Below, piece after piece: positions 17,341-21,859 of a stretch of DNA of 37,363 nt. Below the pieces are notes generated by a model that ran no database searches, was not told where the DNA came from, and saw nothing but the letters and a program-made list of their open reading frames with translations. The stretch is from the NCBI GenBank assembly GCA_019459485.1, contig JAIBEZ010000046.1, positions 1 through 37,363 of the forward strand, given 5' to 3'. The translations under genes were made by a program, and so were the position numbers. Source of the DNA: Prolixibacteraceae bacterium. GTDB lineage: Bacteria; Bacteroidota; Bacteroidia; Bacteroidales; Prolixibacteraceae. Numbering within the stretch: position 1 is the first letter of the stretch; every line of letters starts with the position of its first letter.

Positions 17341-17413
17341 TGAGCCAATTATCAGTTTTTATCGGCTCATATTTTTACTACATTTGAGCCGAATAAGAAA
17401 AATAATCGGCTCA
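17341..17413 (+). promoter_or_regulatory. Double palindromic operator overlapping the fic start codon
   Basis: TGAGCC at 17341-17346 pairs with GGCTCA at 17364-17369, and TGAGCC at 17385-17390 pairs with GGCTCA at 17408-17413. Each inverted repeat spans exactly 29 bp and the two start 44 bp apart, about four helical turns. The four half-sites agree on TGAGCCGATTAW with few mismatches. The last base of the second palindrome is the A of the ATG of the Fic gene, so a bound repressor would block initiation. The C-terminal winged-helix-like part of the Fic protein is an obvious candidate ligand. Confidence 0.6.
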
Positions 17414-18519
17414 TGAAATACAACTGGCAGTTGCAGGGATGGCCCAAATTTTCATTTGAGACCACGGATGTTCAGCCTCTTATCCTCGAATTTGCAAAAG
17501 AAACAGGTGAAATCAACGGCATGATCCTAGGGTTGCCCAACCACCTGAAACAGGAAACGTTGTTGCAGTTGATGATGTTGGAAGCAATAAAAACATCGGA
17601 AATAGAAGGTGAATATATCAGCCGTGAAGATGTGTTCTCGTCGCTGAGGAACAATCTTGGCCTAAACGATATACCTGTTCCTGTAAAAGACCGGAGAGCG
17701 ACTGGGATAGCCCAACTGATGACGGAAGTCAGGAAAAGCTTTCAGGAGCCGCTGGCCATAGACACACTAAAGACCTGGCACAACCTGTTAATGGCCGGAA
17801 CAAGAAATATAAATCGGGGAGAGTGGAGATCGGGAAACGCCCCTATGCAAGTGATTTCGGGTGCTGTTGGAAGAGAAGTGGTACATTTTGAAGCGCCGCC
17901 ATCGGAACAGGTACCCGCAGAAATGGAAGCGTTTGTTAGATGGTATAATTCGGCTGATTTTCCATTGAAAGGGGAGATAGCCGAAGCGGTACTAAAGTCG
18001 GCCATTGCACACCTGTATTTTGAATCCATTCATCCTTTTGAAGACGGGAATGGTCGCATAGGCCGGGCAATTGCTGAAAAAGCGCTATCGCAGTCACTCA
18101 AACGTCCGGTTACGCTCAGTCTGTCAAAAACCATCGAAAAGAACAAGAAAGACTATTATAATGCGCTGAAGGAAGTACAACGTTCCCTGGACATCACTTC
18201 CTGGATACAATATTTTACACAGGTTATTCTGGATGCCCAGCGTGACGCCAAATCCATGGTTCAGTTCACATTAAAGAAATCCCAATTTTTTGACCGTTAC
18301 AGGGACAAGTTAAATGAGCGCCAGTCGAAAGCCGTCCTCAAGGTGATGGAACAGGGTGCCGAGGGTTTCGAAGGGGGAATGACAGCGAAGAAATATATGA
18401 GCATAACCAGGGCATCGAAAGCGACGGCGACAAGAGACTTACAGCAATTATATGACCTGGGCGTATTTATTCGTGAAGGAGGCGGAAGATCAGTACGTTA
18501 TCAACCGAATTTTGATTGA
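17413..18519 (+). CDS. Fic family protein with DUF4172 N-terminus and C-terminal winged helix
   Basis: A 368-residue cytoplasmic protein. Residues 1-80 match the DUF4172-type N-terminus (YNWQLQGWPKF, FAKETGEINGMI). The inhibitory helix motif (S/T)xxxE(G/N) is present as T61-SEI-E65-G66, so AMP transfer is probably self-inhibited, as in N-terminally regulated Fic proteins. The active-site loop HPFEDGNGRIGR contains catalytic His207, and the family core is complete. The end (about 300-368: MTAKKYMSITRASKATATRDL) looks like a winged helix with DNA-binding character. Fic enzymes usually AMPylate protein hydroxyls; the target here is unknown. The start is fixed by the operator that runs into the ATG and by full N-terminal family similarity. 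Confidence 0.92.
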   Translation: MKYNWQLQGWPKFSFETTDVQPLILEFAKETGEINGMILGLPNHLKQETLLQLMMLEAIKTSEIEGEYISREDVFSSLRNNLGLNDIPVPVKDRRATGIAQLMTEVRKSFQEPLAIDTLKTWHNLLMAGTRNINRGEWRSGNAPMQVISGAVGREVVHFEAPPSEQVPAEMEAFVRWYNSADFPLKGEIAEAVLKSAIAHLYFESIHPFEDGNGRIGRAIAEKALSQSLKRPVTLSLSKTIEKNKKDYYNALKEVQRSLDITSWIQYFTQVILDAQRDAKSMVQFTLKKSQFFDRYRDKLNERQSKAVLKVMEQGAEGFEGGMTAKKYMSITRASKATATRDLQQLYDLGVFIREGGGRSVRYQPNFD

Positions 18520-19924: not shown

Positions 19925-21181
19925 TCAAACCAAAGTGATCCACTCCAAAGGGTACCAATAAATCTTTCCCACTATTTTACCGTTTATTTCCCTATCATAT
20001 CCCAGATTCATAAAATCGATGATCTGATCTTCTTTCGGGAAAAACCCGTGACAGTAGCGGGGAAAAATATACTCCGGAACTATCCCGATATAGTCATTTC
20101 CGGTAACCATACCTAAAATCTCTTCTGCGTCTGTCAGTTCAAATGGGATGCCGTTGTCGTAAAGTGCAACAGCCATCTTTACAGTCTCTTCCACCCGGAC
20201 AATACTTGATCCCGCCAGGCGAACTTTCCATTTGCCCTGCATTTCAGAAATATAAAGAGATACATGCGTTGAATTTCCTCCCCGACATATTTCCCAGGGG
20301 TGACCACCTAACCAGGCCGAACTGTGGTGCCATTCGTAAAAAGCAGATGGCGAATCATTGGCAAGTTCTCTTAATCCAGCATCTCTGCCGTCAGCCATTT
20401 TCAGGTACTTTTCTTTTGGCGTCAATTGCATCTGTGAATTACTGAAATAGCTGTTGGCCTCATAACAAATTTCACAAATCCTGAAAAATTCACCGGTGGT
20501 CATCGTCTCTAACAGAGGAATATTCTGACTTTTCGTTTTCGCTACAACTATTTTTAACTTTTCAATGCTTTCATCGCCTAAATTTTTATCGGGTCGAATG
20601 GTTTCATCGCCTTGGATCTCCCAATAACCTCTCCTTTTTATTCTGCCGAATCGCTTCGACCAGGAAAGATTCTGCTCAATAAAATGATTATAGGCGGTTA
20701 CATCTTTTTTCAGTTTATCTGTTTCGTTCACCACTTTTCTGAGTAGCCAATCAGCGAAACTCTCAAAATAATCGGGATCAATAGCTGGAACTTTTGCTGG
20801 TGGTTCATCCTGCCTGATCGAACATATAAGTTTCCCGTCTAAGTAGAAAAATAACTCGTCCTCATATTTTGCAGTATCAAACCGGTACCAGATGGTTTCT
20901 TCAGGGTAATAATCTTTCCAAAGTTGTTCAAACTCTTCGGGGGTTTCAACCTCACCGCTTTCTTTATATTCTTTAAAATCGCCAAAAGCTGAGATTGGTC
21001 CTCGCGAAACTTCAATCCAGATATGTCTTTTTTCATCATCCTCGCCTGGTTTTATACAGCTGAGAATTTCGTATATTTTCTTCAATTTCAGGTAAGAATC
21101 ATCTGAAATGTAGCTTCCTTCAGAATGAGCATGTTCGATAATCACATTTATTTCAGGGACAAAAAGTTCAGTTGCATCCAT
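19925..21181 (-). CDS. Unrecognised 418-residue cytoplasmic protein
   Basis: A long, acidic, intact reading frame starting at the ATG complementary to 21179-21181. No signal peptide, membrane helix or known catalytic motif is visible and I cannot name the family. Conspicuous tracts are IWIEVSRGPISAFGDFKEY, FYEWHHSSAWLGGHPWEI followed by CRGGNSTHVSLYI, and FPRYCHGFFPKEDQIIDFM, the second being Trp/His-rich enough to suggest a conserved pocket. It is the only full-length minus-strand gene in the window and converges with the preceding hypothetical gene. The sequence upstream of its start carries the tRNA-end-like element and repeat arrays, so its promoter must lie in that odd DNA. Confidence 0.75.
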   Translation of the reverse strand: MDATELFVPEINVIIEHAHSEGSYISDDSYLKLKKIYEILSCIKPGEDDEKRHIWIEVSRGPISAFGDFKEYKESGEVETPEEFEQLWKDYYPEETIWYRFDTAKYEDELFFYLDGKLICSIRQDEPPAKVPAIDPDYFESFADWLLRKVVNETDKLKKDVTAYNHFIEQNLSWSKRFGRIKRRGYWEIQGDETIRPDKNLGDESIEKLKIVVAKTKSQNIPLLETMTTGEFFRICEICYEANSYFSNSQMQLTPKEKYLKMADGRDAGLRELANDSPSAFYEWHHSSAWLGGHPWEICRGGNSTHVSLYISEMQGKWKVRLAGSSIVRVEETVKMAVALYDNGIPFELTDAEEILGMVTGNDYIGIVPEYIFPRYCHGFFPKEDQIIDFMNLGYDREINGKIVGKIYWYPLEWITLV

Positions 21182-21406: not shown

Positions 21407-21432
21407 GAGTTCCGTTCCCGCCAACTCCACTA
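21407..21432 (+). other. tRNA/tmRNA 3'-end-like sequence, possible attachment-site remnant
   Basis: GAGTTCCGTTCCCGCCAACT followed by CCACTA resembles a T-loop plus 3' acceptor strand ending near CCA, as in tRNA or tmRNA genes. No matching 5' half or complementary T-stem exists nearby, so it is not a functional RNA gene. Such partial ends are typical of att sites left by islands that integrate at tRNA/tmRNA 3' ends. Confidence 0.35.
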
Positions 21433-21466
21433 ATTGCGGATATCGTTGAAAAACGGTATCCGCAAT
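21433..21466 (+). terminator. Strong hairpin with GAAA tetraloop and T-rich tail
   Basis: Fifteen bases at 21433-21447 pair with 21452-21466 with only one G.T wobble, closed by a GAAA loop and followed by TTCTTTTAT. This is an excellent intrinsic-terminator shape for the + strand. Since it directly follows the tRNA-end-like piece, the two may have been carried along together from an RNA gene. Confidence 0.6.
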
Positions 21467-21518
21467 TTCTTTTATATCAAGTTATTAAGGCTATTGATGA
21501 TCGACTGTAAAAATAAAA

Positions 21519-21572: not shown

Positions 21573-21859
21573 ACAGGACGGTTATTTATTCACGATCCTG
21601 CTTATTTTCTCGTTCTCCTGTTTCTCCGGCAAACCGTCCAGTTAATCCGGTTGATCTCGCTGTAAAAGAGTTTGTGCATCCTGTTTATTTTCTCGCTGTG
21701 CTGTAAGCAGGGGAGAGCGTCCTGTTAAAAAGGCGGGGCGTCCTGTCGGGTTTTGTCCCCGTCCTGTGGAACAGGGCAACCCAAAAGAGCAACAGGGTGA
21801 TGAAAAATATTAACAGGGCAGTTGGAAAACTAACAGGACGATGTAACAAAGTTACAGGG
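21573..21859. repeat. 20/21-bp-phased interspersed repeat array with central inversion
   Basis: TCCTGT-type hexamers (two of nine strongly degenerate) start at 21596, 21616, 21637, 21658, 21679, 21699, 21720, 21741 and 21762, always 20 or 21 bp apart. ACAGGR hexamers, the same core on the other strand, start at 21771, 21792, 21813, 21833 and 21854 with the same spacing; one more lies at 21573. The filler of about 15 bp varies from unit to unit, except that units at 21596 and 21679 share nearly all 20 bases. The two arms meet at CCTGT-GGA-ACAGG (21763-21775), a perfect short palindrome. Stops and 20-bp steps break every frame, so it is not a coding repeat. Confidence 0.8.

What the first reader, a model, noticed from the sequence alone, without database searches (positions are those of the whole stretch)
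21573..21859. A 20/21-bp-phased array of TCCTGT/ACAGGR cores that inverts at a central palindrome
Seen: nine TCCTGT-type cores (two degenerate) followed by five ACAGGR cores on the opposite strand, every step 20 or 21 bp, with about 15 bp of changing filler. The arms meet at CCTGT-GGA-ACAGG. A two-turn period with a fixed core and free filler means that something reads the same face of the helix many times. Iterons and classical tandem repeats keep the whole unit, so this differs. Coding is excluded because 20-bp units and stops break frames. Inference: a multi-site protein-binding platform, a replication or segregation site of a lost element, or the source of an array-like RNA. I know of no named element with this layout.
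Basis: partly seen in the sequence, partly recalled or inferred. Interest (0 to 1): 0.72.

Follow-up and report, generated by a model that had tools for sequence, protein, structure and literature searches.

The report
Two-turn DNA arrays with private code-words
The odd repeat is real and belongs to a widespread, apparently undescribed pairing in Bacteroidota bacteria: a small protein gene beside a row of short DNA words spaced every two turns of the helix, where the word differs from locus to locus in step with the protein's tail, as if each protein reads its own array.

Summary
The array is real: nine CCTGT-type units face five ACAGG units across CCTGT-GGA-ACAGG, every step 20 or 21 bp. Local shuffles never reach its phasing (2000). 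Same-word relatives occur in Prolixibacteraceae and Marinifilaceae.

Some relatives lie 3' of a ~245-aa gene without a Pfam family. Following that gene showed that the two-turn phase is constant and the word is not: ACAGG, GCAGG, ACTCG, CCTCG, GTGATAAC, GGAGAAC, TGTAGGA and others. The strongest downstream period is 20/21 bp in 104 of 117 loci, upstream in 10 of 112. Remote homologues across the phylum mostly have 21-bp arrays upstream (31 of 38; controls 1 of 60).

The word co-varies with the protein's C-terminal tail far more than with the rest. One tail residue predicts one base: Asn with A, His/Lys/Arg with G in 26 of 26 distinct loci that could be classed; Asp with C in 4 of 4.

Best reading: each array is a same-face docking platform for the protein beside it; the window array is a gene-less copy. 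The cellular output is unknown, and no structure could be predicted.

The parts
21597..21767 (+). + arm: nine 20/21-bp units with word CCTGT (five exact, four with one mismatch)
21763..21775 (.). centre: CCTGT-GGA-ACAGG, where the two arms meet; the same 5-3-5 geometry recurs in relatives, most often with TAA in the middle
21771..21858 (-). - arm: five exact ACAGG units, steps 21,21,20,21
21432..21467 (+). terminator-like hairpin (16-pair stem, T-rich tail) with no + strand gene found before it; possible relic of a lost linked gene, since in many linked loci the order looks like gene, hairpin, array (inference)

Best explanation
The window array is a gene-less member of a large family of two-turn-phased DNA arrays. 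SHOWN by sequence: arrays of this phase lie beside members of a protein family of about 245 aa; the repeated word is private to each locus or group of loci; it co-varies with the protein's basic C-terminal tail, and one tail residue matches one base of the word. INFERRED: the tail reads the word on DNA; copies dock every two turns on one face of the helix and build a regular nucleoprotein platform; in this genome the protein encoded on contig C76 (tail WKVKN, Asn type, beside its own ACAGG array) could bind the window array in trans. INFERRED and uncertain: the output of the platform. A centromere-like or tethering scaffold, or a sink that sets the free level of the protein, are the two I favour.
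For: Phase and side: 3 or more exact links at 20/21 bp in 65 of 117 downstream flanks, 0 of 108 upstream flanks, 0 of 117 shuffled flanks, and none downstream at periods 12-18 or 22-31; by autocorrelation 104 of 117 downstream, 10 of 112 upstream, the latter close to the 112 of 1239 control windows with top period 20 or 21. Private words. Tail follows word: L169/L171 (93% identical, words ACAGG/ACTCG) differ at 21 columns, 19 of them in the last 39; L214/L220 (91%, TGTAGGA/GGAGAAC) at 24 columns, 16 in the last 18. Scan of the protein: partial correlation with word sharing peaks in the tail, 0.36 over 1653 pairs and 0.63 over 219 pairs at least 60% identical; best elsewhere 0.16 and 0.29. Code: Asn/A 13 and His,Lys,Arg/G 13 distinct loci without a contrary one, Asp/C 4 of 4 (45 of 47 units). 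On a tree of the body without the tail the state switches 8 times, near the shuffled mean of 9.0. Window array: word columns kept better than filler between window and L049, 56/60 against 136/175, p=0.006.
Against: No binding, structure or expression data. ACAGG arrays exist in genomes without the gene (G003, G022: none up to E=10; Maribellus CM-23: a 47-residue stub only) or whose one gene has another word (Mangrovibacterium lignilyticum), so either another reader exists or those arrays are relics. A subclade without the tail still has arrays (24 of 30). Exceptions to the code: L186 (Lys, 5 A and 4 G), L160 (Ser with A, 4 units), four NCTCG loci with Asn and mixed A/G, one with Tyr and G; three of the Lys/G loci have only 60-73% G. 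Tail and array are neighbours on the DNA and could be exchanged as one block.
Confidence: 0.62

Rival explanations
1. Tail and array are inherited and exchanged as one block, so their match is hitch-hiking and the protein does not read the word; a different, unknown factor reads the arrays.
For: The tail-coding end adjoins the array. All eight His/G loci come from one group of related genes. ACAGG arrays occur without the gene.
Against: Different basic tails (His; Lys in L143; Lys in L191, L193, L194; Arg in L199) all go with G, and Asp goes with C: the chemistry, not only the block, repeats. In a Draconibacterium group the first filler and distal units stay while the proximal words differ between loci, which block replacement does not predict.
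Confidence: 0.2
2. The array is transcribed and works as RNA, a long hairpin or an array-like RNA.
For: The arms are complementary; the window array folds somewhat better than shuffles (z -2.35, 3 of 200 as good).
Against: Several arrays are one-directional with non-palindromic words and cannot pair word to word (L195 ATCCG, L165 TAACTCG, L206 TGATCCG). Many lie beyond a terminator-like hairpin (by eye). Consensus fold of 11 same-word arrays: words invariant, so uninformative; 4 of 32 pairs with two-sided change, covariation term not favourable. No Rfam family. 20/21 bp is two turns of B-DNA.
Confidence: 0.08
3. A REP- or MITE-like mobile element, spread by a transposase, with no binding role of its own.
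For: Dispersed intergenic copies; window and L049 arrays align over 235 bp and the alignment stops 10-17 bp inside the array ends, while their flanks do not align. A motif resembling an IS end lies beside three loci.
Against: No recurrent transposase neighbour. Arrays keep a fixed side of one gene family. Words change between loci and match the tail.
Confidence: 0.07
4. A plain minisatellite that grows and shrinks by slippage.
For: Some upstream arrays are near-perfect 21-bp tandem repeats (autocorrelation 0.83 to 0.96 in four loci).
Against: In the window type the fillers differ while the words agree; slippage would copy both. Tail-word matching.
Confidence: 0.05

Closest known systems
ParR/parC of ParMRC plasmid partition, e.g. 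pSK41 with 20-bp repeats, and the family-specific ParR/parC pairs of Clostridium perfringens plasmids (PMC9426499, passages read)
   Same: A small protein, an array of sites near its gene, 20-bp spacing in pSK41, and array and protein specific to each other; different families have different repeats and spacing.
   Different: Here only a short word repeats, not the whole unit; units also invert across a centre; loci are chromosomal and several per genome; no filament ATPase recurs beside them; the protein family is different (no Pfam match).
REP sequences and RAYT transposases (PMC3733652, passages read)
   Same: Dispersed short extragenic repeats, and copies beside a dedicated gene.
   Different: The gene is not a transposase by profile (no Pfam match); two-turn phase; many words per genome.
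Iterons of plasmid and phage origins (recalled)
   Same: Phased protein-binding repeats near the gene of their binder.
   Different: Iterons keep most of the unit and serve one replicon; here the loci are many and chromosomal, and no Rep family was found among the proteins tested.
NCBIfam NF052641, 'PQLLE family protein'
   Same: The linked proteins match it weakly (E 3.6e-8 at best). True members occur in two genomes that also hold CCTGT arrays; both show their top upstream period at 21 bp, weakly (0.36-0.37).
   Different: All three linked proteins tested score far below its cut-off (15.5-33.4 bits against 80). A search for PQLLE in the paper library gave 0 papers.

Membership tests
ParMRC partition system | ParM-like filament ATPase gene next to the array and its binder | tested here: not met
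   No such gene family recurs within 4 kb of the arrays (clusters of ORFs of 70 aa or more shared by three or more loci; only the main ones were identified)
ParMRC partition system | ParR ribbon-helix-helix DNA-binding protein | tested here: inconclusive
   No Pfam match; profile search of the PDB without a significant hit; no structure
ParMRC partition system | Whole-unit direct repeats | tested here: not met
   Words repeat, fillers differ, arms invert
ParMRC partition system | Stabilises its replicon | not testable with these tools
   Needs a plasmid-loss assay
REP/RAYT | Y1/HUH transposase beside the repeats | tested here: not met
   Linked protein has no Pfam match; no transposase cluster found among neighbours
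REP/RAYT | 20-40 bp palindromic unit tagged GTAG or CGTC | tested here: not met
   Unit consensus CCTGTTARNTTTTTNGCCGY, not a palindrome and without such a tag
CRISPR-like array | Repeats with unrelated spacers, transcribed, with cas genes | tested here: not met
   Word of 5-7 bp, fillers with a shared T-run, no cas among the window genes scanned; transcription not testable
NCBIfam NF052641 (PQLLE) | Score above the curated cut-off (80 bits) | tested here: not met
   15.5-33.4 bits for three linked proteins

The most novel reading that the evidence does not exclude
A phylum-wide class of protein-DNA pairs in Bacteroidota: each protein carries a fast-evolving terminal tail that reads a private 4-7 bp word repeated on one face of the helix every two turns, in an array at the tail-coding end of its own gene. 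The pairs re-code themselves in place, the words of an array changing together with a few tail residues, so that several paralogous pairs can live in one cell without cross-talk.
Probability: 0.5. Interest if true: 0.93.

Novelty: categorically new. Interest (0 to 1): 0.86.

Why it matters
It would give microbiology an undescribed protein family with a readable recognition code: dozens of natural tail/word pairs, some differing by a few residues and a few bases, ready for a specificity assay. It explains a class of two-turn-phased repeats beside Bacteroidota genes and poses a testable question: why should a cell keep several distinct same-face binding arrays? If the arrays are centromere-like or tethering sites, this is a new kind of chromosome-organising system; if they are titration sinks, a new kind of autoregulation.

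Tried and rejected
Coding: rejected for the window type, since 20- and 21-bp steps mix; not excluded for exact 21-bp upstream arrays. Chance: rejected. RNA family: none in Rfam at gathering scores. CsrB-like reading (ACAGGA resembles CsrA sites): considered from memory, dropped because words lie on either strand and change between loci. A known mobile or defence gene beside the arrays: none recurs among the clusters that I identified; PADLOC gave nothing for three linked proteins. Plasmid and phage homes: no hit for the array in plasmids, for one linked protein in plasmids and phages, or for the strict array pattern in viral contigs. A motif beside some arrays (seen) was followed as a possible IS end: exact in 3 of 133 loci, and with up to 1 mismatch in 1 of 41 genomes; left open. 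A strictly gene-linked model: fails for the orphan arrays. Solved structures: no significant relative for the linked family (best E 0.39); for the upstream family only its carboxypeptidase-like domain. Protein structure: not obtained. Literature: ten searches found no description; the library is open-licence PMC only and the terms were few, so absence from print is not shown.

Rows dropped before counts: of the 42 stretches, three gave no array of five linked words (L073, L084, L100), two were set aside because they lie inside ORFs (L072, L083) and one because it is a plain tandem repeat (L079), leaving 36; I printed and looked at part of these. One search left out L072, L077, L079, L081, L083, L084, L100 (L077 and L081 are second copies of L050 and L058). 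One search measured 13 of 14 loci (gene of L252 not located). In one search loci with fewer than 4 in-phase units were not shown, and the table needs a base at 60% or more, which leaves out L186. One search used 58 of 63 loci after removing identical ones. In one search the states of 26 loci were entered by hand; L160 (Ser, A), L186 and second copies of four genes were left out. In one search, L277 and L278 lie in the alignment used for the search, L316 and L317 are near-identical, L314 lacks upstream DNA. The gene sets hold a few genes twice, because one genome was reached by two routes.

Full report
WHAT IS IN THE WINDOW. The array runs from 21597 to 21858. Nine + units (word CCTGT, five exact, four with one mismatch) meet five - units (ACAGG, all exact) at CCTGT-GGA-ACAGG; all steps are 20 or 21 bp. 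In 2000 approximately dinucleotide-preserving shuffles of the local 500 bp the best same-word phasing was 4 links against 6 observed; over the whole window only the four overlapping 500-bp windows at this place exceed 3. The array lies between a - strand ORF without a Pfam family (19925-21181) and an ECF sigma/FecR/SusC/SusD row (from 22294). No tRNA and no Rfam match is in the window.

RELATIVES WITH THE SAME WORD. A pattern of three CCTGT words at 20/21 bp hit 24 of 61 related genomes; some hits are coding or simple repeats, and the reversed control pattern hit in 5 of the 61, so the two-armed pattern is the stricter test. It found 42 stretches in the 84,980-species collection, 36 of which I keep. 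By record title these are Draconibacterium, Maribellus, Mangrovibacterium, Sunxiuqinia, Mariniphaga, Labilibaculum, Ancylomarina, unnamed Prolixibacteraceae, Bacteroidales or Bacteroidetes, and one Cyclobacteriaceae MAG (L063). Draconibacterium is Prolixibacteraceae and Labilibaculum Marinifilaceae. None was found in viral contigs. The unit consensus is CCTGTTARNTTTTTNGCCGY; the centre is most often CCTGT-TAA-ACAGG; in a large share of arrays one arm steps 21,20,20 and the other 20,21,20,20,21. The closest relative of the window array (L049, genome G022) is 192/235 identical without a gap; the alignment ends 10-17 bp inside the array ends and the flanks do not align. Word columns are 56 of 60 identical, filler columns 136 of 175 (Fisher p=0.006).

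THE GENE BESIDE THE ARRAYS. Among ORFs within 4 kb of the arrays one family recurs in 8 loci: a protein of about 245 aa whose stop codon lies 7 bp before the first word in three loci and whose ORF lies 36-171 bp away in five more (the copy in L085 is broken by a frame change). It has no Pfam family and a sub-threshold likeness to NCBIfam PQLLE. It occurs in 49 of 140 genomes of the window's family, and among 295 genomes of the class only in the window's own. The window genome has two such genes (contigs C76 and C5); the window itself shows none.

THE WORD IS PRIVATE, THE PHASE IS COMMON. Flanks of these genes showed arrays of the same phase with other words: GCAGG, ACTCG, CCTCGCA, TATCCGG, TGATCCG, TAACTCG, GTGATAAC, GGAGAAC, TGTAGGA, GCGGAC, TGGAA, TGCAAAG, TCCAC and, by eye, CCCGGG, CCATGG and others. 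Three or more exact links at 20/21 bp: 65 of 117 downstream flanks, none at periods 12-18 or 22-31 (the neighbouring settings 19/20 and 21/22 catch part of the same arrays: 17 and 37), 0 of 108 upstream flanks (one upstream hit at 23/24), 0 of 117 shuffled. By autocorrelation the top period is 20 or 21 in 104 of 117 downstream and 10 of 112 upstream flanks; control windows give 112 of 1239. In a Draconibacterium group the first filler (gacaaatgtaa or close to it) and the distal GCGGA units are shared, while the proximal words are GTGATAAC, GGAGAAC, TGTAGGA, TCAGGAC or GCGGAC (compared by eye): the words changed together, in place.

THE TAIL FOLLOWS THE WORD. L169 and L171 are 93% identical and have words ACAGG and ACTCG; 19 of their 21 differing columns lie in the last 39. 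L214 and L220 (91%) have TGTAGGA and GGAGAAC; 16 of 24 differing columns lie in the last 18. A scan of 10-column windows over 58 loci, controlling for identity of the rest, peaks in the last windows (partial r 0.36 over 1653 pairs; 0.63 over 219 pairs at least 60% identical); the best window outside the tail reaches 0.16 and 0.29. In tails of the form Y-W-[KR]-x-x-N the sixth residue goes with the base before CAGG: Asn with A 16, His/Lys/Arg with G 14, Ser with A 1; 13 and 13 without repeats (Fisher p=1.9e-7, not corrected for kinship). On a tree of the body without the tail the state switches 8 times; shuffled states need 9.0 on average, minimum 5, so kinship of the body explains little. Exchange of tail plus array as one block could account for switches that involve the His group; the different Lys and Arg tails and the Asp/C loci (4 loci, 45 of 47 units) argue that recognition, not only linkage, is at work. 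Against: L186 (Lys, 5 A/4 G), L191, L193 and L194 with only 60-73% G, L244 (Tyr with G), and four NCTCG loci with Asn and mixed A/G. That Asn-A, Arg/Lys/His-G and Asp-C are common protein-DNA contacts is recalled, not tested.

HOW FAR IT REACHES. Weak PQLLE-like genes in other Bacteroidia and in the window genome had their strongest upstream autocorrelation at exactly 21 bp in 13 of 13 measured loci; downstream 21 bp was at the top only once, in a three-way tie at 0.34 (L249). A phylum search with a second profile (A4) matched 155 of 395 genomes, but most listed hits are to the shared carboxypeptidase-like domain of large proteins; 18 listed genomes have matches over the helical body (my count from the capped listing). 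Of 38 such loci examined, 32 have a top period of 20-22 on at least one side (31 upstream, 10 downstream, the downstream ones mostly weak), against 1 of 60 stretches from 12 loci without the body; six loci show none.

MECHANISM. Shown: association, phase, private words, tail-word co-variation. Inferred: the tail reads the word; proteins line up on one face every two turns; the inversion at a 3-bp centre sets two rows facing each other. Not known: what the platform does. A centromere-like or tethering scaffold is suggested by analogy to ParR on the 20-bp pSK41 repeats and to private ParR/parC pairs (PMC9426499, passages); a titration sink is the simplest alternative. The window array would be a gene-less outpost: its word is ACAGG, and the genome codes an Asn-type protein beside another ACAGG array on C76. 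A + strand terminator-like hairpin at 21432-21467 without a + gene may mark a lost gene.

AGAINST. G003 and G022 hold ACAGG arrays but no such gene at E up to 10; Maribellus CM-23 has a stub, and Mangrovibacterium lignilyticum one gene with another word, both with long ACAGG arrays. A subclade without the tail keeps arrays (24 of 30). No structure, binding or expression data exist here. As RNA, the consensus fold rests on invariant words, and the window array folds only somewhat better than shuffles (z -2.35).

Noticed in passing
L249, L256, L270/L326, L275 (genome of the window, contigs C17, C110, C91, C54): Four more, remotely related genes in the same genome, each with a 21-bp array at one end: upstream in three, downstream (word ATAGCCA) in the one on C91, whose protein has a basic C-terminal end.
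   Followed up: partly
L044, L048, L042, L076, L082, L099: Within single arrays the word shifts in blocks at constant phase: CCTGT beside CATGT (L044, L048) or beside CGAGT (L042, L076, L082, L099), as if caught in the middle of re-coding (seen by eye).
   Followed up: no
L208-L220 group, distal units: Distal units keep the old word GCGGA while gene-proximal units carry a new word, which suggests polarity of re-coding from the gene side.
   Followed up: no
L055, L057, L064 and, less exactly, L058, L059, L153, L242: A motif like CCTAAAATAGCTTGACA sits at the edge of some arrays and might be an insertion-sequence end.
   Followed up: partly
arrays: By crude ORF calling, arrays seem to lie between convergent genes more often (about 13) than between divergent ones (about 4), the window being divergent (counted by eye).
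   Followed up: no
window 17413-18519; L049 7953-9041; L051 1472-2584: A related gene (Fic with DUF4172 in the window) lies within about 4 kb of three CCTGT-type arrays.
   Followed up: no
L063: A Cyclobacteriaceae MAG holds a good 3+11-unit ACAGG array, outside the order of the other hosts: transfer or a mis-binned contig.
   Followed up: no
L281, L291, L318, L321: Some upstream arrays are near-perfect 21-bp tandem repeats of about 18 to 32 units; 21 bp is also seven codons, so a coding reading should be checked there.
   Followed up: no
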